The translations under genes were made by a program, and so were the position numbers. This document shows positions 36,445-53,846 of a stretch of 64,000 nt of DNA, in pieces. The stretch spans positions 7,002,734-7,066,733 of the forward strand of contig NC_061806.1 in the NCBI RefSeq assembly GCF_021462225.1, given 5' to 3'. The first letter of the stretch is position 1; every line of letters begins with the position of its first letter. A model generated the notes under the pieces. The model worked only from the letters and a program-made list of their open reading frames with translations, did no database searches and had not been told where the DNA came from. This stretch comes from Girardinichthys multiradiatus. Its lineage: Eukaryota; Chordata; Actinopteri; Cyprinodontiformes; Goodeidae.

Positions 36445-36535
36445 TTAAATGAGTCAATTAAAACACAGGGGTGTGTTTAAGGGTGTTACGGGGAAGGCCT
36501 TAAATGAGCCAATTAAAACACACAGGGGTGTGTTT
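36443..36535 (+). repeat. Left terminal iterons (two copies)
   Basis: Two tandem copies of a unit with a 55-bp period (starts 36,443 and 36,498). The core is TTAAATGAGYCAATTAAAAC followed by ACAGGGGTGTGTTTAAGGG. The second copy has a CA insertion. The first copy is an exact inverted match to 52,302-52,335. Confidence 0.9.
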
Positions 36536-36888: not shown

Positions 36889-37463
36889 ACAGAAAAAATA
36901 AAGAACTTCAGTATACTGTTTCCAAGTTACAAATTGACTAGCAATGATGTGTTTGTTTTTGAATCATGAGAGACTCCATTTTAGAAAAAAGGAATGATAA
37001 TTTTAGTTACCTGTAGCTTTTCTAAAACATTTACTTTTTCATCTTAGAGTAAAAGGTTATTCAGGGGAGTTACAGTTATACTATATCCATCTCTTAGGGG
37101 CGATGTCAGGAAGGGGCAGTTAGGTCTGTTCCTTAGATAACCATATCACCTTTGAACTGGAAAAGCAGCTGAAAGAGGTAAGATAAATATGAGATTAACA
37201 GAAAAAAAAAGAACTTCAGTATACTGTTTCCAAGTTATAAATTGACTAGTAATGATATGTTTGTTTTTTTAATCATGAGAGACTCCATTTTAGGAAAAAA
37301 GGAATGATAATTTTAGTTACCTGTAGCTTTTCTAAAACATTTACTTTTTCATCTTAGAGTAAAAGGTTTCAGGGAGTTACAGTTATACTATATCCATCTG
37401 TTAGGGGCGATGTCAGGAAGGGGCAGTTAGGTCTGTTCCTTAGATAACCATATCACCTTTGAA
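36848..37463 (+). repeat. 309-bp tandem duplication
   Basis: The segment from CTGGAAAAGCAGCTGAAAGAG at 36,848 recurs at 37,157 with scattered substitutions and small indels over the whole unit. It is non-coding apart from the possible exon end. It is more diverged than the 315-bp duplication inside PolB. Confidence 0.9.
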
Positions 37464-37528
37464 CTCAAGAAAGGTTTTGGTCTTAAAAACATAGTCTTTG
37501 CAGTTGAGATAACACTGTCACGTTCTGG

Positions 37529-37536
37529 TATAAATA
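37529..37536 (+). promoter_or_regulatory. TATA box for the spliced gene
   Basis: TATAAATA, 120 nt upstream of the ATG at 37,656. It is the only strong TATA element just upstream of the plus-arm genes. Confidence 0.6.
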
Positions 37537-37655: not shown

Positions 37656-37816
37656 ATGTCGGTAAATATTTCAGGAAACCCGGAAATTGTGGCTTCTACT
37701 TCTGATAATTCACAAAAGCACAATGACATCTTTAAACGTAAGTAAGTAAGTAAGTATTCATTTTTAAGAAATCATTAAATGCATGTGAATGTTCTCTAAT
37801 TTTGTTTATATATATT

Positions 37817-37853
<37 letters not shown>

Positions 37854-38840
37854 TCTTTGTCATAGAACCCCCCGCTGATGACCTTGATGATTTCATCTTG
37901 ACACAATCAGATTATGGTAAGTAAATGTTAAATGCAATAAAATATATATATATATATATATATTATAGTTAACCCTTGACAATGTTTCAATTTATAGATT
38001 TGATGAGAGAGGTAAACCCGAATGATCAAGTTGGAGGGTTCAGTGGCTGGAATCGACAGTCAAAATTGAGAAGGCGAATTATTTCCAAACAAGAAAAAAC
38101 CCCAACCACAACTGAACTTTCTTCTAACACCGAAATTAAAACTGATTCTTTGAATACTCCTCCGTCAATTATCATCATTTCCCCTGAAGACACACCGGAT
38201 AAGTTACCGGCACCACCAGAAAGTAAGTAAGTCCTAGGAACCAGCTATTTTTCTTTGAGAGTGAATGTATTTTAAACCTCAGATAAAAACTGTTTACAGA
38301 TTCGACTGAGAGCTCTGTGGAAGACACAGCTGTCGAGCAGCAGCAGCAGCAGGGTAGAAAAAATAAATAAAAATTAAATAAAAACAATATATATGTATTT
38401 TAAGCATAGTTCAATAAAATGTCATATAAACCTGTTTACAGATACATCCAAAGATGCCACATTGAATCCGCCCACCAGAAGGTCGCTTTTCAAAGATCAA
38501 GACAGCTTTCAGCAGAGAGGCACCGTTTCAGTTCAACAAGAAGTGAAATCTGGAGGTTTTACCGCAAAGAATCGGAGTAAGATTAAAAACAAAACTTGTG
38601 TATTTTAAAAACTATTTTTCGTTTTATTTATGAACGCTGTGCTGCGCAGCATAAGATAACTTTTATTGTCTTCTGTTTTTACAGAATATTTAACCCCGGC
38701 CAAAAGACAGCGACTCTCTGCGCTACAAAGCAGAGCAACGCTAGTGAGTGGATTAATGAACGGTACGTTTTAATTAATACATACATACTGAATTAATTTG
38801 AATTCCTTTGGGTTTTTTTCCAGCTTTAATGTGATTATTT

Positions 38841-38888
<48 letters not shown>

Positions 38889-39098
38889 TTTTATTTATTT
38901 ATTTATTTTTTGTTCATTCTCCTTACAGAGGTAACGTTGATGGTAGGACAGATTGGCTACAGAAACGGACAGCGCAGGAAGACAGTCTCTACAGCCTCAC
39001 GGAATCTTCGTAATAAGGCCTCATCATTAACGCTTCTGGCAGCATGTCAGATTCTGTTAAAGAAGCATTTTGGTGACATCAAGGTGATTTTAAACTGA
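37656..39098 (+). CDS. Seven-exon spliced nuclear-type protein of the viral element (264 aa)
   Basis: Exons 37656-37737, 37866-37916, 37998-38222, 38300-38353, 38442-38576, 38685-38762 and 38929-39098. All six introns start GT, end AG and are phase 1, so exons 2 to 6 are multiples of three (51, 225, 54, 135, 78). Joined, they give one uninterrupted 264-codon frame ending in TGA. The product is unknown to me. It has an acidic start (ADDLDDF), a Ser/Thr/Pro-rich middle, five Gln at the end of exon 4, a basic nuclear-localisation-like PAKRQRL in exon 6, and a basic C-terminal exon (GQRRKT, then a hydrophobic helix). Its place ahead of PolB, behind its own TATA box, suggests an early regulatory or replication-associated protein. 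An acceptor at 37,671-37,672 in the same phase means that exon 1 could also be used as an internal exon. All splice signals are intact, unlike several neighbouring genes. Confidence 0.82.
37802..37965 (+). repeat. (AT)n tracts in introns of the spliced gene
   Basis: AT-dinucleotide runs at about 37,806-37,849 (intron 1) and 37,940-37,965 (intron 2). A third run of about 40 bp lies at 38,842-38,882 in intron 6, followed by TTTA repeats. Confidence 0.9.
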
Positions 39099-39180
39099 AC
39101 TGATCACTGTGTTTTGTTTTTGTTTTTGTTTTTTTCTGTAGGTTAGTTTTATTTTATTTTTTTTTCTTATGTTCATAGAA

Positions 39181-42100
39181 ATGGATAACCGAATCAGACT
39201 TGCCCTGGATGAAATAAGAAATTTAGTTAATGAACTTAACGAAATTCACGTTAATGCAGAAGTAGCAGATAACATCGTTTTAAATGCATCTCCTGCTAAC
39301 AGTGAAAATGTAATAAATGAACATCAGCACGGTGACGTTTTAAACGTAATCAATCAGGCTCTTGACGATTTAAATAGAGCATTTTGTCCACTCAGTATTG
39401 AGCAAAATGATCCACCTGACACTCATCAGAATCCTTCTACGTCACACGCCGCAGATCGGCACGGGGGTCATTTCAATACGGACGTAGCAGTTAGTTCTGA
39501 TCAAATAATCAGACTTGCCCTGGATGAAATAAGAAATTTAGTTAATGAACTTAACGAAATTCACGTTAATGCAGAAGTAGCAGATAACATCGTTTTAAAT
39601 GCATCTCCTGCTAACAGTGAAAATGTAATAAATGAACATCAGCACGGTGACGTTTTAAACGTAATCAATCAGGCTCTTGATGATTTAAATAGAGCATTTT
39701 GTCCACTCAGTATTGAGCAAAATGATCCACCTGACACTCATCAGAATCCTTCTACGTCACACGCCGCAGATCAGCACGGGGGTCATTTCAATACGGACGT
39801 AGCAGTTAGTTCTGATCAAATAGGACGAAACCCTCCAGCCGTGGTTGAACGTGAACATTTTAATAACCATGAAATAAGGAGACCTTTTACCATACCGCCG
39901 CCCTGTCCAAGTAACGTTCCAGATTTAGCCGCATTCTATACAGACATCGTGCGTATTATCATTGAATTAGCCGACGCTGCGAGATCGTTAACCAGACGTA
40001 ACGGCGTTGTGCAGCTGGAATTAGTGGGTGAAAATCTCAATTGTCACATCACATTTACTGTTACAGATGATGGAAATATGATCCTGCCTGCTTTCGAAAA
40101 CTTCCTCGACGATTTAGTACAATCGAATGCAAATATACCTGTAGATAATAACATGGAATTTGTTCTTCAGGTTGTTAATGACCCAGCAGGAGGTTCTAAG
40201 CGTAAAGCTGCAGGAACGTTAGACTGTGAACTGTTTAATAAGAAAATGCGTCATTTGTATATTATAAACAATACCGGTAATCAGTTATGTTTTGCAATCA
40301 GCCTCGCACACGTCTCTGATCCTGAGCTCACAGATCACCGTGCTGTAGAACTGGGGAGGAGATGGCAGCATCAGGCAGGCCTCGACGAGCAAACAGCAGT
40401 TACGTTTAGTGATATTGGTAAATTTGAAACCATTCTGAAGAGAAAAATTGTAGTGTTTCACAGAACCACGGGCTCTACTGCTCTGTGTAAATTTGAGACC
40501 AGTTTCCCTGATCGTTCAAACCCTCTGTTTTTGCTGTTATTTCAAGGTCATTACTATGGGATAAAAAATCTCAAAGGTTTTATGGGGTGCAGATATATTT
40601 GTAATTACTGTTACACCAGCTATGATAATGCAAATACACACCATTGTGAAGGTTATTGTCCAGTGTGTCGAACATATAAATGTATGCAAGAGATTAGCAA
40701 TCCTGTAAGCTGTGCAGGCTGTCAAAGAATCTGTCGTAATTCCTCATGTTTCAGCAGACACAGGGAACCGCGCATCAGAAATAGTGCTGACAGACCTATG
40801 AGTGACTGTGAGTTGGTAAAACTGTGTAAAGTATGCAAACGGATATACGTTATTCCAATCAGTAAACCGAATAAACCACACGTGTGTAATGTAAAATGCA
40901 GTATTTGCGGTGAAAATGTACCCCCCAGCCTAGACATTACATACGATGATCATAAGTGTTACATTCTGCCTTGCAGTGCAATTAATCAGCTTGATGATAA
41001 ACTGATTTTTAATGATTTCGAATGCCTCGTCAATGAGAGCGGCGTGCATACCCCCTTTCTGGTCTGTGCTAAAACGTTGAAAGGTGATGAATGGTACGCT
41101 TATGGACTGAATTGCACCCAAAAATGTATCCTGCATTTCAGGAGGCCGAAGTACAGAGGCTTCACCTTAATAGCGCACAATGCGCGGGGGTATGATGGTT
41201 ACCTGATTCTCACAGCAATGCTGTAGTTAGGCATTAAACCTCATCTCGTCATGGTAGGAAGTAAACTTCTCTGTTTAACCGACCCTGATTACAGGTTAAA
41301 ATACATTGATAGCCTGTCCTTCATGTGCATGAAGCTTAGTGCCATGCCGAAAGCGTTGGGCTTTACCGATCAAAGCAAGGTTTTTTTTCCCCACCTATTT
41401 TCCTCTGAACAACGTCTCCAGTATGTGGGGCCTTTTCCTCCTACATCCTGCTACGCTGTAGAACGCATGAGTCTTCAAGAACAACAGGTGTTTAGCAGCT
41501 GGTACAGAGAAGCGAGCAAAGAGGTCTTTGACTTTAAGAAAGAAGCTATTCGTTATTGTAAAAATGACGTTGAAATTCTTTTTCAAGGATGCTTAAAATT
41601 CAGAGACGAGTTCTTTAAGGAGACAAGTGTGGATCCGTTTAAAAGTATCACAATAGCATCAGCCTGCATGAAGGTTTTTGTAACCAATTTCCTTCCTCCT
41701 CAAACCTTAGCCATTCCATCACCTCTGGACTACAGACGTAGCAGTAAAACGTTCTCCAGTGCGTCCATTCAATGGCTCGGCTGGATTGCAGAGAGCAGAG
41801 CCATATTTATCGAGCATGCATTAAATAGGGGTGAAAAGAAAATCGGGCCATATTCAGTGGATGGGTATGCAGAGATTAACGGTGTCAAAGTTGCGTTTGA
41901 ATTTTACGGCTGTTTTTTCCACGGCTGTAAAAAGTGTTACATGCCTCATGACAAGTGTCCGTTGAGAGGGATCACATTTGAACAGTTTTACGCAGCCACT
42001 GTTGAGAGAAGCAAGGTGTTACAAACTGTGTACGGCCTTCGTCTTGAAGTCATATGGGAGCATGAGTGGATTGAAATGAAAAAATCAGACCCAGGGGTGA

Positions 42101-43482
42101 TCAGCTTTCTTGAGAAAGTTAATGCACCCGAACCGCTATACCCCCGGGATGCTCTGTATGGTGGACGCACCTGTCCTATGAGGTTGAGGTACACAGCGGA
42201 ACCGGATGAAACTGTACACTATGTGGATTACACATCTCTGTACCCTTATGTAAACGCCAACTGCGTTTTTCCCCTCGGACACCCCACCATAATTTACAAA
42301 GATTTTGATTACCCCAGCAGCTACTTCGGTATAATCAAAGCTGTGGTCTACCCACCACGTAACCTGTTGTTCCCTGTTTTACCTTACAGAACATCCCAAG
42401 GTAAACTTGTGTTCACTCTCTGCCGCTCATGCGCTGAAATAAATAACCAATCAGGTCCCTGCATGCATAATGATCAGGACAGAGCTCTGACGGGAGTTTG
42501 GGCGAGTGTAGAACTCTGTAAAACGTTGGAGTGTAGTTATCGTCTTGCTAAAATCACAGAGGTGTGGCATTTTGAAAAGAGAAGTGATACAATTTTCAAA
42601 GGTTACATTCATTGCTTTTTAGAGGGTAAGCAGGAGGCTTCAGGCTATCCGTCTGAAGCAGTGGATCAGGAGAGTAAGTCAAAGTATATAAGCGACTACA
42701 AACAGCATCAGGGCATCCAATTAGACCCTGAGAAAATCGAGATGAATCCTGCCAAAAGGAAGGTTGCAAAATTGTGTTTAAACAGTTTTTGGGGGAAATT
42801 TGCGCAAAGAAGTGATCTGTCTCAGACCACAGTCATCACTAACCCTGAAGACTTTTTCAGCTTCATGTTCTCAAGTAAATACAGGGTTAACTATTTTCAT
42901 TTTTTCAACCCTGAAATGTGTGTAGTGCAGTGGAATTTTAGTAAACGTGTCATATATCCACCAAGTAAGACAAATAATGTGTTTATAGCAGCATTCACCA
43001 CTGCTTATGCACGTTTAAAACTTCTCAGCAGCGTGGAGAAGTTACAGGACAGATTGATTTATATTGACACGGACAGTTTGATTTATGTGACAAAAAGGGG
43101 TGAAACTCCTCTGGAATTGGGGAATTATCTGGGTGATCTTACTGACGAGTTAGATGGTGACAGCATTTCGGAGTTTGCATCGACAGGACCCAAGAGTTAT
43201 GCATACCAAACTAAAAACCGTAAAAAAGTAGTGATACGTGCTAAAGGCATCACTCAGACGCATGAATGCAGCGAGAGGGTCAATTTTGACAGCATCAAAG
43301 GGCTGGTCGAGGGCTACTTACAGGGGTCAAGTGAGGGTGTCATTGAAATCCCTCAACACACGATCAGGAGGGATAAAAAGAGATTCCGTTTGACAAACGC
43401 GACATTTCTTAAAAAGTTTCGACTGGTGTATGATAAGAGATGTCTTTTTTCTGACGGGACAACTCTGCCTTTCGGTTATTAG
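39181..43482 (+). pseudogene. polB: Protein-primed family B DNA polymerase, interrupted by one in-frame TAG
   Basis: One frame of 1,433 codons from ATG 39,181 to TAG 43,480-43,482, broken only by TAG at 41,224-41,226 (codon 682). The start at 39,181 is preferred to the one four codons upstream because a polypyrimidine-AG acceptor (TTCTTATGTTCATAG) ends just before it. In order: a 105-codon tandem duplication (6-215); a module with LCFA (Cys370) and GHYYG (His457) resembling a papain/OTU-like fold, by inference; a Cys/His-rich zinc region (about 465-580); Exo I DFE (Asp612); Exo II with YD (Asp672); Exo III YCKND (Asp796); an inserted nuclease-like segment around EFYGCFFHGCKKC; PolA DYTSLYP (Asp1016); PolB-motif NSFWGK (Asn1201); PolC DTDS (Asp1296, Asp1298). 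All catalytic boxes remain. The stop falls between Exo II and Exo III and separates the exonuclease start from the polymerase core. The length is typical of Maverick polymerases. Confidence 0.92.
39196..39825 (+). repeat. 315-bp in-frame tandem duplication within PolB
   Basis: Copy 1 is 39,196-39,510 and copy 2 is 39,511-39,825. Only two bases differ (CTTGACGATT/CTTGATGATT and GATCGGCAC/GATCAGCAC). Both are transitions at CpG, and the frame is kept (105 codons). Confidence 0.97.
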
Positions 43483-45537: not shown

Positions 45538-46080
45538 TTAAATTCCATAACAATCCAGAAACATCTCCAAAGAGCATGTTCTGTGAGTATAAAATGTACA
45601 ACTTTGATTAATGACACATTTCTGATATTTTTTCACAAAGTTAGATACCATTAAATCATTCTTAATCACATCTCCGGTGTATTTTGACAACACTTGCTGC
45701 ATTGATAATCCGCACGCTCTATGACATAGATAAAAAATGCAATGGTGACCGCACACGGTGGACAGAGTGTTTTGAAGCTGATTATTATGATACAATATTT
45801 TTGAGGATCTGTCTTCTAAAAATGTTACGATGCTTGACGGGTAGAACTCGAAATCCGGAGAGAATCCATAAGAGTCAAAAAAGCTGGATTGACCATTCTC
45901 ACCCAATGTCAGAGCTAGCCAGTGTTCTCCAGGCATGTGTGAAGGATGTGTGTTCACAATAAAGTAGGCCGGCCCTGGGAATTTGTCAGCTAGCAGCGGC
46001 AGCTGGTCGCACGGCCATACACCACAAAACAAATCTCCCAGCAGATGACGCATCAGGCTCTCAATTTCATGATTATTCAT
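45538..46080 (-). CDS. Adenain-like cysteine protease (180 aa)
   Basis: Catalytic layout of the adenovirus protease family. His53 is in GEHW, Asp69 in FFDSYG, and Gln103 (oxyanion) lies seven residues before Cys110 in STVCGHHC, the same Gln-to-Cys spacing as adenain. The length is close to adenain's (about 200 aa). In adenoviruses and Mavericks this enzyme matures capsid and core precursors. It starts 11 nt after the MCP stop, at the inner end of the minus-arm late cluster. The frame is fully open and all catalytic residues are present. The C-terminus (EMFLDCYGI) has an extra Cys-rich segment after the core fold. Confidence 0.92.
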   Translation of the reverse strand: MNNHEIESLMRHLLGDLFCGVWPCDQLPLLADKFPGPAYFIVNTHPSHMPGEHWLALTLGENGQSSFFDSYGFSPDFEFYPSSIVTFLEDRSSKILYHNNQLQNTLSTVCGHHCIFYLCHRACGLSMQQVLSKYTGDVIKNDLMVSNFVKKYQKCVINQSCTFYTHRTCSLEMFLDCYGI

Positions 46081-46091
46081 GCCTGATTAGA

Positions 46092-47399
46092 TTAATAATA
46101 ATCCACCAGCACACGCCTCTTTGAATCAATCTCTAAAATAGAATCATAACAAGCGTAGATGATCAGCGTGGTGGTATGAGGCAACGGGTTTCTGAAGCGC
46201 ATTTCCAATCTTAAATTCCCACTGGAAACTGGAGATAGAGCATCTGTGTCCTCGCCCGGGTTAAGATTAAATGTGAATAGAGAGTATCCTTGATTAAATT
46301 CCTGACGTGTTATACTCAGTGGAAGATCTTTTAGATGTCGTCCTGTAGCCGTAAACAAGTTGTAATACTCTCTCACTGAATGACCTTGGTTAAAATTGGG
46401 CTGGAAGGCTTTAGCAGGAATTTGTCTGCCATCCTTACACAAAGCTAAATATTCCATATCAAAATGATTAAAGTCAAACGGATTGAGATTGCGTGTTCCT
46501 GTAAAAGCGTCATGATCCAGTAACGCAATCACCACATACTTGGGAAAGACGCCTAAGAAAAGATTCTCTTGGTTGCATACCCTTGAATTTTCAGGGATGG
46601 AATATGTTTTTACATTCACACGTGAAAGTGGATACAGAGCATTTGCTTTCATTAAAGCTGAAGCGTGCCCCAGTCGTACAGCTGGAGAGACAGTAAACAT
46701 TTTGATAAAAAGAGATGCTCCTAATATCCTGAGTTTGTAAGTGGAGTCTCTTGCTGCCATGAGACAAAAGGCATCGTTGGCTCTTGTAAGTTTAATTTTA
46801 AGGTCAACAGAGTTTAAAAGAAGTCTCTCGCAGAAAAATATGTCTGCATGCAGGGGGCCTAGGAGATGTACCTCCCTGGAATTTGCCGTAAAGCCTGCTC
46901 TGCTGTTAAGACCTTGGTTAGGGCCGTTAGTTGTAACAATAGAGTTCAGAGCACCTGCAGTGTCTTTATAAAAAAGACCAGAGCTAAACTGGGTTTTTAA
47001 AGAATCCTCAGAAAAGTTTAACAATGTCTCAATCATGGCTCTATATGGATGTGTAGCGCTGGATTGTGAAATCATTCAATCTCCGAGAGTGACGTCACAC
47101 TGACTGAAGATGGTGTTTAACGGGTAGTTGATGAGCCCTACAGGTGCATCATCTGGCAGGTTTGTTCCATTCTCGTTAGTAATTTTCACTCTGAGATGCA
47201 ACAGCGTATCGTTGAGATCCAGATACTTTTCTCCGTCTCCCGGAATGAAAAACTCGATCGGCCCTCCATCAGTGATTGCTGATAAAGGCTGGATCTCGGT
47301 GTAAATTTTATCTTCAATCGATAGCTGCGTCATCGGGGCAGAAAATAAGTCCAACTCTGCCAGCGTGCACTCTGATGATTTGTTATGTAAAAGAGCCAT
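46092..47399 (-). pseudogene. Double-jelly-roll major capsid protein, interrupted by one in-frame TGA
   Basis: A 435-codon frame from ATG at 47,399 to the stop at 46,092. TGA lies at 47,078-47,076 (codon 108), and an ATG follows immediately in the same frame. The N-terminal part has FFIPGDGEKYLDLNDTLLHL and INYPLNTIFSQCDVTLGD. The main part has SQFS-type ETLLNFSEDSLKTQF, GLFYKDTAG, LLGPLHADIFFCERLLLN and the second jelly roll ending YDSILEID. These blocks are the hallmark of Maverick/adintovirus hexon-like capsid proteins that trimerise into the shell. The start overlaps the core-protein stop by one base (TAATG). Apart from the TGA I see no other damage. Confidence 0.92.
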
Positions 47400-48766: not shown

Positions 48767-49844
48767 TTATACGTTTCGAAGTTCATCAAACTTGATCCAA
48801 CTGTTGAATTTCTCAGGCCAGTTTTTCCAGCTTACAAAAACCTGTTTGACTCCCTTGACCGTACGTCGTTTTAATATTTTTTCCACTTGATACATCTTGT
48901 CGTTAAATATTTTTACTTTTTGAAGTTCCTCAGCGTAAAAGGAACCCTCGATAGGTTCTCCATCCAAATCTTTGAGTTTGTATACAGGAGGAGATCGGGG
49001 TATCCGCTCATACACTGTAAACACTTCATCCGTAAAACTTCGTATTTTTTGTCAAACACTCCACGGACCTTGGATATTCTGACAAGATCCCCTTGTTTAA
49101 ACGTTGTCACTGAGTCCTTGCAATATCTGTTGGACTTGACATCATACAGATTCTGAAACACTTGAAAGGCATTTTCTGGGGTCACTTCCATAGGGCTCAT
49201 TTTAATGCTGGAGTGGTAGGAATGGTTGTAGCTTCTAGCTAGGTTTTGCAGTACATCGACGTACCGCCGGGTATTGTTAGCTGTAAAATATCTCCACATC
49301 CTTGTTTTTAATGTGCAGTTAAATCTCTCGACCACTGAAGCTTTGGCTTCACTCGCTGTGGCAAAATGTTCAATACCGTGTTTGTCCATTAAAACCTTAA
49401 ATTTCTTGTTAAAAAATTATTTACCGGCATCAGTCTGAAGTTTTTTGGGGATCTGACTTTCTGTAAAAACTGATTCAAATGCCTTTACCACCTCAGCGGC
49501 TGTTTTCCTCTTCAAAACTCGTACCTTTTTGAAAAGATGTCAATGACTGTTAATAAATAATTATAACCATCATTTTCCATGGCCAGAGCTTGCATGTCAC
49601 AGAGATCAGCCTGGAACTGCCTCAATGGTCTGGTGACAAAAACTCTGTTTCTCGGGAACTTTATTCTTGCAGGTTTATGTAGAGTATAGGTATCTTCTCC
49701 TGATAAAAAATCTTTAACTTTTTCAACCGCAACCTTCTTTCCCGTTTCATCTTGCATAACCCTCCTCAGCCTATCTACACCCCCAAAACTTCCCGGATTT
49801 GAAGGGCTATAATATACTTTCTTCATCAGCCGTCTTCCTGCCAT
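48767..49844 (-). pseudogene. Retroviral-type integrase with C-terminal chromodomain, multiply broken
   Basis: Starts at ATG 49,844. The N-terminal region and first catalytic Asp (FQADLCDMQ, Asp80, codon 49,607-49,605) are in the first frame to about 49,515. A frameshift follows after IDIFSKR. The second Asp codon is at 49,431-49,429. TAA at 49,419-49,417 breaks the second segment. The third acidic residue is Glu at 49,329-49,327 in SVVERF, with 33 codons between the second Asp and the Glu. A second frameshift near 49,030-49,045 leads into the chromodomain frame (YQVEKIL, SWKNWPEKFNSW) to the stop at 48,767. Maverick integrases insert the element; chromodomains can steer insertion. All catalytic positions remain visible, but this gene has more lesions than any other in the element. 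Confidence 0.92.
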
Positions 49845-50186: not shown

Positions 50187-50780
50187 TCAGTTTGTCAGTC
50201 CATAGCACTCTGAAACAGAGTTAAGTTGTTTGAGGTGTTTCTCTTCGACCATGCGATCATAAACGTGCGCTATTGCACTGTGGATGCCTTGTACCGATTT
50301 CAGTTCATATAAAACCGTCTTGGCAATCGTCTTCACTCTGAAGTCATCCGCTTGTATGCGTCGAAGTACCAGAAGATTCTGAATAGCAGGAACGTGTTTG
50401 GGGGTTACGAGTCGTCGTACGATGCGTTGAAAGTTGACTTGGTAATAATCCTCCCCCAATACCTCCAGGCAATGGTGTTGACGCTGGCTCGGGTGGTTTG
50501 TTATACATCCATAGCAGGTTTCTCTGAGATAGTTCAAAGAGGTTATGTTGAATAAATGAAGTATCGCTGTTTTCACCGTATTGATGAGGGTGGTTGAGAA
50601 CCAACCGTCAATTTCGTCCTCCTGGTTACTCTCATCCTCTGCTGAAGGCTGAGGGTCCTCCATCGGTTCCAGGGTTTGTGTAGGGGCTTCGGTAGAGGGT
50701 GAGTAGCCGGTGGCTACCTCCTCCTCCACGACCACCTTCATGTCTTCTGGCAGGACATTCGCGTCTACAGACTCAGCCAT
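50187..50780 (-). CDS. Accessory ORF B: acidic protein with Cys/His zinc-knuckle-like cluster (197 aa)
   Basis: Start chosen at ATG 50,780, whose ATGGCTGA overlaps the stop of ORF A. The frame is open further upstream only to a GTG, and that upstream part is the shadow of ORF A. Residues 1-58 are acidic and Pro-rich (EEEVATG, EDESNQEDEIDGW). A hydrophobic helix follows, then Cys89, Cys92, His96, His102/His103 and Cys104, pattern C-x2-C-x3-H-x5-HH-C. After that comes a helical C-terminal half (YYQVNFQRIVRRL, PKHVPAIQNLLV). I recall similar HPSQ-containing clusters in other aquatic-animal virus-like sequences, but no function is known to me. Confidence 0.65.
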   Translation of the reverse strand: MAESVDANVLPEDMKVVVEEEVATGYSPSTEAPTQTLEPMEDPQPSAEDESNQEDEIDGWFSTTLINTVKTAILHLFNITSLNYLRETCYGCITNHPSQRQHHCLEVLGEDYYQVNFQRIVRRLVTPKHVPAIQNLLVLRRIQADDFRVKTIAKTVLYELKSVQGIHSAIAHVYDRMVEEKHLKQLNSVSECYGLTN

Positions 50781-51027
50781 GAATAGCGGTGATGGTGAGC
50801 AGAGGTCTGGAGAAAGCGGTAGATATTTCATGTTGTATCCATTTAGGTGATGCAGGACTGAAGTGGTTCTCTGAGAATGAGGATGTTGAGGTGGATGGTG
50901 AGAAGAGGTCAGGGGAAGGCGGATGATATGGTCCAATGTTGAAACTTTCATCGTGCTCAGGAGAGAAGTGGATCTCTGCTCGGTGGTTGTAGAGATCCCT
51001 GTATGGTGTCGGTCCACTCATTCTCAT
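50773..51027 (-). CDS. Accessory ORF A: Ser/Pro-rich protein (84 aa)
   Basis: Start chosen at ATG 51,027 (MRMSGPTPYRDLY). The longer open frame would begin inside the TATA box. Composition is Ser/Pro/His-rich with tandem-like FSP motifs (HFSPEHDES, PDLFSPSTS, NHFSPASPK). The stop TGA overlaps the ATG of ORF B (ATGGCTGA), so one mRNA may express both by leaky scanning or reinitiation, or the two may be parts of one frameshifted gene. No domain is recognised. Confidence 0.5.
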   Translation of the reverse strand: MRMSGPTPYRDLYNHRAEIHFSPEHDESFNIGPYHPPSPDLFSPSTSTSSFSENHFSPASPKWIQHEISTAFSRPLLTITAIHG

Positions 51028-51097: not shown

Positions 51098-52099
51098 TCA
51101 GAAGAGGGTTCGTTCTAAACGTAAAACAGGAAACGTCAGCGTTTTTTTCACTGACATGACATCGATCCAACTTCGTGACTTTTGGAAAAGGTCGGAAAGA
51201 CGATGTCCAATTTCACTCATCTTCTCTGCCCAAGCTTCAAACGGCAGAGCCAGCATTGTCTTGAATACGCTGCAGTCCTGATTGAAAGCCTCCAACACAA
51301 ACAGATCTGAGGGACTCGTCCGGTTGTTCCTGCGTCTGCTTGCCCGAAAAGTCCAGCGGCCATTTGCTGTGGTTTTTGACCCCCACACTGTGCTAAAAAG
51401 AGGTTCTCTCTCAGCTATTTCAACATCGGATGGTATATGAAACATTCTCGCCCGTTTTACAGGTCGAGGAGACAGTTCATTTTCTTCTTCTTCTTCCTCC
51501 CTCTCCTGCCTTGAGACTGTTTCAGGGCTATCATTAAGGTGCGGGATTGCAAGCTTTAACACAGCCCAGTCGCTGTGGGTGAGTGTACACAGAGCCAGTG
51601 ATCCATTAAATACCTCATCTTGATCCAATTGATACAGGCAAAGCTCTCCTATTTCATACATGAAAATATAACCCCAGCTGCCAACCAGGCCATATGGCTC
51701 CAAAGACCATTCTTCCTGCAGAGTGTCGAACGGGGGTCTTTGTACCCTGCAGATGTAGTATGTTGATTTCTTAGGAGCATTCAATTCACGGGATGAATAC
51801 TGGTAGACGGTCACTGGGGTTTCGCACAGAACTGACATACCTCTTGGCCGAACCGAGGTCTGATTTTCAACCATGGTTGTTGAAGTTGATGTTGGATCCT
51901 CATCATCGGTAGAGTATGTCATGATGGGAATTCCGATAGGTATCTCCGTTGAGGAAGTATATGATGCAGTTGCTTGTTCATCATCGATAGGTATCTCCGT
52001 TGAGGAAGTATATGATGCAGTTGCTTGTTCATCATCATCATCTTGGCACGCGTTGCGTTTCTCCTCCGCTTGACGATAAACTCTCTTAACTCTAGCCAT
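51098..52099 (-). CDS. Accessory protein of unknown function, 333 aa
   Basis: The outermost gene of the minus arm, with ATG at 52,099 and an intact frame. It has a basic N-terminus (MARVKRVYRQAEEKR), then an acidic Thr/Ser-rich region containing a perfect 17-residue duplication (DDEQATASYTSSTEIPI twice). A globular-looking middle follows (WSLEPYGLVGSWGYIFMYEI). A long Glu run (EREEEEEENE) is followed by a basic PRPVKRAR motif that could be a nuclear signal. A second folded region is at the C-terminus (GRWTFRASRRRNNR, LPFEAWAEKM). I do not recognise it. Terminal position and a nearby TATA box suggest an early or host-interaction gene. Confidence 0.7.
   Translation of the reverse strand: MARVKRVYRQAEEKRNACQDDDDEQATASYTSSTEIPIDDEQATASYTSSTEIPIGIPIMTYSTDDEDPTSTSTTMVENQTSVRPRGMSVLCETPVTVYQYSSRELNAPKKSTYYICRVQRPPFDTLQEEWSLEPYGLVGSWGYIFMYEIGELCLYQLDQDEVFNGSLALCTLTHSDWAVLKLAIPHLNDSPETVSRQEREEEEEENELSPRPVKRARMFHIPSDVEIAEREPLFSTVWGSKTTANGRWTFRASRRRNNRTSPSDLFVLEAFNQDCSVFKTMLALPFEAWAEKMSEIGHRLSDLFQKSRSWIDVMSVKKTLTFPVLRLERTLF
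51935..52036 (-). repeat. 51-bp perfect tandem duplication in the 333-aa gene
   Basis: Two identical 51-bp units (51,935-51,985 and 51,986-52,036) that keep the frame and duplicate 17 residues. Confidence 0.97.
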
Positions 52100-52167: not shown

Positions 52168-52335
52168 AAAGCACGCCCTATTGTTTTCATTGGGTTATTC
52201 AAGGTTTAACGATGCTTACAAACACACCCCCTCTATTTTTAATTGGTGCTGATGCCAAACAGTTTCCGATAATACCATATTTGTCTTGTTCTATTTATAA
52301 CAAACACACCCCTGTGTTTTAATTGACTCATTTAA
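52168..52335 (-). repeat. Right terminal iterons (three degenerate copies)
   Basis: Three minus-oriented copies of the terminal motif. The one at 52,302-52,335 is exact to the left end; a diverged copy is at 52,220-52,246; the most diverged is at 52,168-52,204. Motif landmarks on the minus strand are CAATTAAAA followed by GGGGTGTGTTT. Confidence 0.75.
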
Positions 52336-53846
52336 AGTATCGCCCTAATGACGACAACCAATCAGCATCCATGGTTACGCCCCCTTGGACCACCTGCTTG
52401 ATCACGTGACCTCCTGCCCACATGGCAACCACATGGCGCCCACATGGCCCCCACCGGAAGTCAAAAAGTTTGATGAAAGGGTGTACTTAAATTCTCTCAT
52501 ATACATTCGTTTATATTGATGTAGTTAGTTAATAAAAACATGTTTCACTTTGTTCTTTGTTTTATCATTATAATATTCAACTAACCTAAGGGAAAAACAT
52601 AAAATTATAAAAGATCATGACATTTTATTGATATCTGGGTTTTTCCCCTTGTACTTATTATTACGAACATCAGGAAATACCGTGGGCAGGCTAGAATGTA
52701 TAAGCTTGAACACTTAATTTGAGCTAAAATGATTACTTGTTGCTACAATGGGGACCAATGCCAGTGTTACAACAAAATCAGACTATCAGAAACTATGACT
52801 GCAGTAGGACGTGACATTCTGTCCGCCTGAAATACGCCCCCCTCCCTGCATTGCGAGCGCTTACAGCTGCCAAAGAGTGGTAAATCAAATTCTGTGATCA
52901 TTAGATGCTTTAATTCCAGAGAGTGCTGTTGAGTATGTCCAACTGAAATATTTTGTTATATTCTGATGACTGTATTCAGAAAATGTTATCATACTGAATA
53001 ATAAATCCTGCTTCTGCGGGCAAAACGTCTAATTTGTAGTTACTTTAACACCAGCAGACATAATCTCACTCTGACCTTTTTGTTAAACGTGAGAGCTCTG
53101 GTACAGATCTAATCATTTTGACATATTTTTCAAATAAATTTATGATCAGAAAGTCATTCTTTCTATCATAAACTGTGTTGAATGGTTGTAATTTTTGATT
53201 ATTAATTCTAACTTTTGTAAAGCAAACATGTTTATAGGAATTTATTACATATGATCCATGTTGATTCAGTGTTTACACTATAATTTAGAAACACTTAGCA
53301 TTTGTGTTAAAAAATATATAAATGAAAACACACTCTACAGTAAGGAAACAGTATAGTCATTTCCAAATAGGCTAGCCATATAGGCATAGCTAACACTGTT
53401 TTACTTACACTCGTCAGTTTTTATTAGTATTCGAAAAAAAACAAAAAACATGCCTGACTTTGTAAAAATCTAAATGTTTAGAAATTGGCCAAAAACTGTG
53501 TGTGGTTTTTACATTTAAACAGCCCTTTCCTGTATTTTATTGTTTCATAGTTCTCTTTTAACTATGCCCGGAATCAATCAAGATTTTCTTTAAAAACGTG
53601 AGATGTTTATTATTATTATTATTATTATGTTTTAACAGCCGGAATCAATAAAGATAAAAAAAAAAAGGTGACATAACGCAGCTGGTATAGGAAATAGCGC
53701 CCCCTTCATTTCCTGGAGTGCAATGGTACCATTTCCAAACATGGTATGGGTCTGTCGTGTGGTCCGTCCCCGCCCCTTTTTGTTTGCTGCAGGAGGTCCT
53801 TCTCGGTGTAATTGTAATAAACCGCATCAACCAAGGCGACCACTGT
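52336..53846. other. Intergenic DNA, no gene recognised
   Basis: Contains three closely spaced CCACATGGC-type units (about 52,416-52,450) and a (TTA)n run near 53,613. The rest is AT-rich. No exon or transposon end was identified. Confidence 0.5.

What the first reader, a model, noticed from the sequence alone, without database searches (positions are those of the whole stretch)
37656..39098. A seven-exon gene inside the viral element whose six introns are all phase 1
Seven short segments bounded by consensus splice sites join into one 264-codon frame. Every intron is phase 1, and the inner exons are all multiples of three, so any can be skipped without a frameshift. Such modular splicing is unusual for a transposon or DNA virus gene of this size, and I do not know the product. 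It could yield many isoforms.
Basis: seen in the sequence. Interest (0 to 1): 0.9.

Follow-up and report, generated by a model that had tools for sequence, protein, structure and literature searches.

The report
Spliced seven-exon gene in fish Maverick
A virus-like mobile element, present in hundreds of copies in a fish genome, carries what looks like a real gene cut into seven small exchangeable pieces, although genes of such elements in vertebrates have been reported to have no introns.

Summary
Seven segments (37656-39098) with GT-AG boundaries give 264 codons plus stop; all six introns are phase 1 and the five inner exons are multiples of three. It is not chance. Of 60 aligned copies from the same genome, 47 keep all twelve splice sites, and exon 4's donor moves between copies yet keeps frame in 56 of 56 where a donor was found. 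Differences shared by three or more copies show purifying selection on the protein (normalised N/S 0.45); private ones look neutral (0.97). Seven annotated proteins from five goodeid fishes match it; five join exons 6 and 7 at exactly this junction, one omits exon 3, another exon 6, in phase. These are gene models, not RNA. The gene lies between the left terminal repeat and polB of a Maverick/Polinton; the unspliced exon-7 boundary occurs 485 times (up to three mismatches). A 2021 survey observed no introns in intact vertebrate Mavericks. Best reading: an element-encoded, spliced regulatory protein with a low-confidence, probably disordered N-terminus and a C-terminal helical hairpin, no known family. 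Splicing, isoforms and function are untested.

The parts
37529..37536 (+). TATAAATA, candidate promoter element 120 bases before the start codon
   Evidence: present in 20 of the 22 copies displayed (of 60 aligned)
37656..37737 (+). exon 1, start codon ATG, 82 nt
   Evidence: ATG in 55 of 60 copies; P0125 of Xenoophorus captivus begins with a matching peptide
37866..37916 (+). exon 2, 51 nt, acidic segment
   Evidence: matching peptide in P0125
37998..38222 (+). exon 3, 225 nt, longest and most variable in length; not in gene model P0125
38300..38353 (+). exon 4, 54 nt; donor lies 6 nt upstream in the other subfamily without change of phase
38442..38576 (+). exon 5, 135 nt, contains RRSLFKDQ, identical in the four goodeid proteins that reach it
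38685..38762 (+). exon 6, 78 nt, contains TPAKRQRL, identical in the five goodeid proteins that hold this exon
38929..39098 (+). exon 7, 170 nt with stop; end of the predicted helical hairpin
38223..38299 (+). intron 3, holds TGTATTTTAA at 38266
38354..38441 (+). intron 4, holds TGTATTTTAA at 38394 and AATAAA words
38577..38684 (+). intron 5, holds TGTATTTTAA at 38599
39099..39178 (+). spacer between exon 7 and polB: T-tracts of varying length and two acceptor-like words (CTGTAG to 39141, TTCATAG to 39178)
   Evidence: each AG present in 59 of 60 copies
39169..43482 (+). DNA polymerase B, two open frames in this copy (39169-41226, 41251-43482)
   Evidence: PF03175, 6.5e-36 on the second frame; no family over its cut-off on the first
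45538..46080 (-). adenain-type protease (end of the opposite gene module)
   Evidence: PF00770, 23.5 bits, cut-off 21.3
46092..47075 (-). capsid-module protein, shortened here (327 aa; listed relatives mostly about 410-437 aa)
   Evidence: the name major capsid is inferred from gene order
52302..52505 (-). right terminal inverted repeat; the left one is cut short in this copy (from about 36445)

Best explanation
It is a genuine, spliced accessory gene of a high-copy vertebrate Maverick/Polinton, at the left end of the element just upstream of polB and on the same strand. Shown by comparison: coding exons, conserved boundaries and phases, and selection for the protein while the element was spreading, followed by neutral decay of individual copies. 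Inferred: it is transcribed from a TATA promoter near 37530, spliced by the host nucleus, and makes a protein with a probably disordered N-terminal part, a nuclear-localisation-like patch (TPAKRQRL), an RxLF docking-like motif (RRSLF) and a C-terminal helical hairpin (modelled on the goodeid record P0125, which lacks exon 3). This is the build of a nuclear regulatory protein that binds host partners through short motifs. Because every inner exon is symmetric, each motif cassette can be left out without loss of frame, so one short gene can give variants that all keep the exon-7 end. Confidence is about 0.93 that it is a real spliced gene, about 0.45 for a nuclear regulatory role, and about 0.35 for functional exon skipping.
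For: Structure and phases. 60 copies in two subfamilies: 47 keep all 12 splice sites; exon lengths measured with each copy's own donor keep frame in 58/60, 57/57, 52/58, 56/56, 58/59 and 53/57 for exons 1-6 (copies without a recognised donor left out: 0, 3, 2, 4, 1, 3). Shared differences: 30 N, 24 S, 2 stop (S fraction 0.429 against 0.254 expected, p 0.003, N/S 0.45); private: 87 N, 32 S, 4 stop (N/S 0.97). Without exon 7, by which 33 copies were chosen, 0.50 against 1.09; with only the 27 copies chosen by DNA, 0.41 against 0.84. Indel events per 100 nt in 58 copies: exons 3.9, introns 27.3 (the introns hold microsatellites); multiples of three 17 of 31 in exons, 55 of 177 in introns. Goodeid proteins: five of seven join 6 to 7, and of the five that hold the end of exon 5 four join it to 6 and one (P0127) to 7, each with the junction codon that phase 1 predicts. 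Terminal-repeat sequence upstream of the gene in 27 of 30 copies, the window's included. Model of P0125: two long helices, 115-144 and 157-193, block means of pLDDT 71-89 over most of their length, low confidence before about residue 107.
Against: No RNA was examined. No spliced (processed) copy in the genome for three junctions (0 matches each; the unspliced control 485), so splicing has no direct trace. Donor 4 of the window copy is weak. In the 27 copies chosen by DNA, the excess of 3n indels in exons is only suggestive (8 of 15 against 18 of 67, p 0.066), and exons 1-2 show no purifying signal of their own (shared 10 N, 1 S). Shared versus private N/S differ at p 0.036 only (Fisher). Several copies carry frameshifts or stops. 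In P0125 only the residues STE tie its fourth segment to exon 4 of the window. The motifs are short, named from recall, and could be chance. No family, solved structure or specific fold match supports a function.
Confidence: 0.75

Rival explanations
1. The region is mainly a spliced 5' leader unit for polB: transcripts start near 37530 and splice to acceptors just before the polB start, and the small protein is one of several products of a shared early transcription unit.
For: Two acceptor-like words before polB are kept in 59 of 60 copies although the T-tracts around them vary in length. In the window a phase-1 donor spliced to 39179 would even be in frame with polB (read).
Against: In all 10 displayed copies of the second subfamily (of 16) an extra A after that acceptor shifts the frame, so a fusion protein is not conserved; purifying selection and goodeid models show that the small protein itself matters. 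Compatible with the best explanation.
Confidence: 0.2
2. A host gene captured with its introns by the element, now serving it; the uniform phase is inherited from a host gene of symmetric exons.
For: Introns in an otherwise intronless kind of element; uniform phase 1 is typical of shuffled host exons (recalled).
Against: No relative outside seven goodeid proteins in two word-based searches of 5.8 billion proteins limited by length; no Pfam family for five exons and five goodeid proteins. A fast-evolving captured gene would be missed.
Confidence: 0.2
3. Introns 3, 4 and 5 (and so the shared phase) arose inside the element by duplication of an intron or an exon-intron unit.
For: TGTATTTTAA occurs three times on the + strand of the 64 kb, once in each of introns 3, 4 and 5; 15 of 5000 shuffled intron sets share such a word in three introns; local alignments of pairs 3-4, 4-5 and 3-5 are reached by 19, 7 and 77 of 3000 shuffles; introns 3 and 4 share the last ten bases.
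Against: Chosen after looking, three pairs of fifteen; whole-intron alignments are not significant (1035, 221 and 1596 of 3000 shuffles); of 21 exon pairs only one reached p 0.045, on nine bases; in the second subfamily the word is kept in intron 3 of only 9 of 16 copies. It could be a shared splicing signal instead.
Confidence: 0.15
4. Chance: splice-like words around unrelated open segments, no gene.
For: Short exons, AT-rich introns; the mechanical chain search did not rebuild the seven exons.
Against: Conserved sites and frames, selection contrast, annotated relatives in five other genera.
Confidence: 0.03

Closest known systems
Vertebrate Mavericks (Polintons; proposed Alphaproteovirus)
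   Same: polB module and protease/capsid module on opposite strands pointing inward, terminal inverted repeats, about 16 kb, accessory regions at the ends (PMC8097293, passages seen)
   Different: The survey observed no introns in intact elements; here a left accessory gene has six
Annotated goodeid proteins P0001, P0002, P0123-P0127 (hypothetical proteins of Goodea, Characodon, Xenoophorus, Ameca, Ataeniobius)
   Same: Matching exons, junction codons and C-terminus
   Different: Five of the seven are marked partial; P0125 lacks exon 3, P0127 lacks exon 6; none carries a functional name
Adenovirus early regions (recalled, no call)
   Same: Works-like only: spliced, motif-rich, partly disordered regulatory proteins encoded near the end of a linear DNA genome with a protein-primed polymerase
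   Different: No sequence relation found here; adenovirus early genes have few introns and no series of six symmetric phase-1 introns
Adintoviruses and the motif-defined Oncoid class of small DNA viruses
   Same: Animal elements with adenovirus-like replicase and virion genes plus integrase; an accessory class defined solely by short linear motifs (passages of PMC11071296)
   Different: No spliced multi-exon accessory gene is described in the passages seen; membership of this gene in that class was not tested

Membership tests
Vertebrate Maverick/Polinton (the element) | protein-primed type B DNA polymerase | tested here: met
   PF03175 6.5e-36 on window:41251-43482
Vertebrate Maverick/Polinton (the element) | adenain-type protease | tested here: met
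   PF00770 23.5 bits, cut-off 21.3
Vertebrate Maverick/Polinton (the element) | retrovirus-type integrase | tested here: inconclusive
   ORF 48913-49389 lies where it is expected but has no Pfam match; the window is not among the 150 places scored for PF00665, of 6138 candidates
Vertebrate Maverick/Polinton (the element) | capsid proteins | tested here: inconclusive
   window:46092-47075 has 573 relatives, many of the 120 listed named F54H12.2-like in fishes; none is named capsid there, identity taken from gene order
Vertebrate Maverick/Polinton (the element) | terminal inverted repeats | tested here: met
   about 200 bp at 52302-52505 matched, in whole or part, upstream of the gene in 27 of 30 copies; left repeat of the window copy truncated
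Vertebrate Maverick/Polinton (the element) | 6-bp target site duplication and end motif | not tested
   outer ends were not mapped
Intronless genes, as reported for intact vertebrate Mavericks | no introns | tested here: not met
   six conserved introns in this gene, by sequence, without RNA; statement of the survey
Adenovirus early-region protein (works-like) | sequence or fold relation | tested here: inconclusive
   no Pfam, PDB or specific fold match; absence of a match does not exclude one
Adenovirus early-region protein (works-like) | alternative splicing in expressed RNA | not testable with these tools
   no RNA data; two gene models omit exons

The most novel reading that the evidence does not exclude
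The gene is the head of an adenovirus-like early transcription unit of a Maverick: one TATA promoter, a series of symmetric motif-cassette exons that can be skipped one by one to tune a nuclear regulator, and alternative acceptors before polB that tie the polymerase to the same spliced leader. This would be a modular splicing programme not yet described for Mavericks, with phase-1 introns perhaps multiplied inside the element.
Probability: 0.15. Interest if true: 0.8.

Novelty: new variant of a known kind. Interest (0 to 1): 0.55.

Why it matters
Intact vertebrate Mavericks are described as having intronless genes, and surveys count them by open reading frames; a conserved seven-exon gene in a family of hundreds of copies means that accessory genes may have been overlooked. 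It also suggests that these virus-like elements depend on, and can exploit, host nuclear splicing. The natural set of hundreds of copies makes selection on splice sites and exon frames directly testable.

Tried and rejected
Chance chain search: the first version found only a one-exon chain, reached by 12 of 200 shuffles; the second beat 1000 shuffles but with a four-exon chain. Neither is used as main evidence.

Intron 4 looked unusually conserved in the first 30 copies (6 of 88 sites variable), and its AATAAA words suggested an early poly(A) site. In the 60 copies its AT tract varies freely and its end is not clearly constrained (0 shared, 9 private differences in 41 sites); dropped.

Fusion to polB through the 39178 acceptor: in frame in the window, but the displayed copies of the second subfamily (10 of 16) have one more A; rejected as a conserved fusion.

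Processed copies as evidence of splicing: none for junctions 5/6, 2/3, 6/7.

Literature: nine searches on this gene or its context and one for a goodeid annotation (nothing held). No listed title or start of abstract reports a multi-exon Maverick gene in a fish. Beyond listings I saw passages of PMC8097293, PMC11071296 and PMC11071308, none whole. The adintovirus founding paper is not held. Repbase was not available.

Full report
What is there. The seven segments are in the sequence as described, with GT-AG ends, phase 1 throughout and 264 codons before the stop. Intron lengths are 128, 81, 77, 88, 108 and 166 bases. Around it lies a Maverick/Polinton: polB on the + strand directly downstream, a protease and a capsid-type gene on the - strand, and an inverted repeat at 52302-52505 whose left partner is truncated here near 36445. 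The window copy is itself damaged: polB is split over two frames and the capsid-type gene is shortened. The gene sits between the left repeat and polB, where a survey of vertebrate Mavericks places an accessory region (passages).

Copies. A search with the whole region scored 40 of 1048 first-look places in the 1.15-Gb genome; 28 cover it from end to end, the window's own included, the other 27 at 90-98% identity. Exon 7 alone gives 150 scored matches of 827 candidates, all at 98-100% peptide identity, so the list is saturated, and the intron 6/exon 7 boundary occurs 485 times with up to three mismatches. I aligned 60 copies: 27 of the 30 loci (L036-L038 left out) and 33 of 40 fetched by exon-7 match (seven without the full region left out; all 40 have an exon 7 identical in peptide to the window's). 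They fall into two groups of 44 and 16, the second at about 87-91% DNA identity to the window.

Is it a gene? Splice sites: 47 of 60 copies hold all twelve; single sites are present in 56 to 60 copies, donors being sought with patterns that I wrote. Raw alignment columns first seemed to show lost donors, but the 22 copies displayed show that donors 1, 3 and 4 slide within short repeats. At exon 4 the second group uses CAAG|GTAAGG, six bases shorter, still phase 1 (10 of 10 displayed). Selection: using the window only as a reading reference, differences seen in three or more copies are enriched in synonymous changes (24 of 56 against 25% expected, p 0.003), while private ones are not (32 of 123). 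The contrast survives without exon 7 (20 of 50, p 0.014) and is in the same direction with only the 27 copies chosen by DNA (10 of 22, p 0.03). Two copies, L043 and L065, were dropped from the tests on the larger set; codons at exon junctions and the repeat-like ends of exons 3 and 4 were not counted. Against this, exons 1 and 2 together show 10 nonsynonymous and 1 synonymous shared differences, so the signal comes from exons 3-7, and the direct contrast of shared with private differences is at p 0.036. Indel events are seven times rarer per base in exons than in introns, but the introns hold microsatellites.

Relatives. Two word-based searches of the protein collection with exon 7 returned seven proteins, all annotated in goodeid fishes: Goodea, Characodon, Xenoophorus, Ameca and Ataeniobius (family membership of the genera). 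P0001 runs from exon 6 into exon 7 at the predicted codon. P0123, P0124, P0125 and P0126 run from 5 to 6 to 7. P0125 begins with exons 1 and 2 and then goes straight to a segment that starts STE like exon 4 and is otherwise different; the junction codon is the one that phase 1 predicts. P0127 goes from 5 to 7, again with the predicted codon. P0002 holds exon 7 only. These are annotation products; whether they rest on RNA is unknown to me. No relative outside goodeids was found, but the searches need shared five-residue words and similar length. The host of the window was not identified.

What it might do. Five exons (1, 3, 5, 6, 7; the others are too short) and five of the seven goodeid proteins were scanned; none reaches the cut-off of a Pfam family. 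Exons 3 and 7, P0001 and the goodeid alignment match no solved structure significantly (best E 0.42). A model of P0125 (mean pLDDT 57.7) is of low confidence up to about residue 106, which I read as disorder, and ends in two long helices, block means of pLDDT 71-89 over most of their length. P0125 lacks exon 3, so that part was not modelled. Fold searches give only generic helical hairpins. TPAKRQRL and RRSLFKDQ are unchanged between the window and the goodeid proteins that reach them (five and four); reading them as a nuclear signal and a cyclin-docking type motif is recalled motif knowledge, not a test. I therefore propose a nuclear regulatory protein with low to moderate confidence.

Why all phase 1? 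With vertebrate phase frequencies from general knowledge (about 0.47, 0.30, 0.23), six equal phases of any kind have a probability near 0.01 and six of phase 1 near 0.0007, so the pattern is notable rather than astonishing. Introns 3, 4 and 5 share TGTATTTTAA, found at no other place on the + strand of the 64 kb; 15 of 5000 shuffled intron sets share such a word among three introns. This hints at a common origin or a shared splicing signal. It was noticed after the fact, whole-intron alignments give no support, and in the second subfamily intron 3 keeps the word in only 9 of 16 copies.

Known or new. The 2021 survey states that intact vertebrate Mavericks encode intronless ORFs and that no introns were observed (passages). 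My searches listed no report of a multi-exon Maverick gene in fishes (calls listed under tried and rejected), but Repbase and most subscription papers could not be searched. I rate it a new variant of a known kind.

Noticed in passing
window 39192-39491 and 39507-39806: A 300-base segment at the start of polB is duplicated in tandem at 99% identity, adding a repeated N-terminal block in frame.
   Followed up: no
window 36894-37465: Upstream of the gene a unit of about 308 bases is present twice in tandem, 94-99% alike.
   Followed up: no
window 52460-52479; L045 and L050, end of exon 3: In two of the 22 displayed copies the end of exon 3 carries 20 bases identical to a stretch of the right terminal repeat, in frame and keeping the donor (read by eye).
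   Followed up: partly
window 38266, 38394, 38599: TGTATTTTAA occurs three times on the + strand of the window, once in each of introns 3, 4 and 5.
   Followed up: partly
window 39141 and 39178: Two acceptor-like words before the polB start are kept in 59 of 60 copies while the T-tracts around them vary, suggesting a spliced polB leader.
   Followed up: partly
G000, whole genome: Many of the 60 scored polB copies (of 1659 candidates) have long open frames, up to 1434 aa, at 96-97% identity, which suggests that the family spread recently.
   Followed up: no
window 50187-51017 and 51098-52099, - strand: Two single-frame accessory ORFs at the right end without Pfam matches.
   Followed up: no
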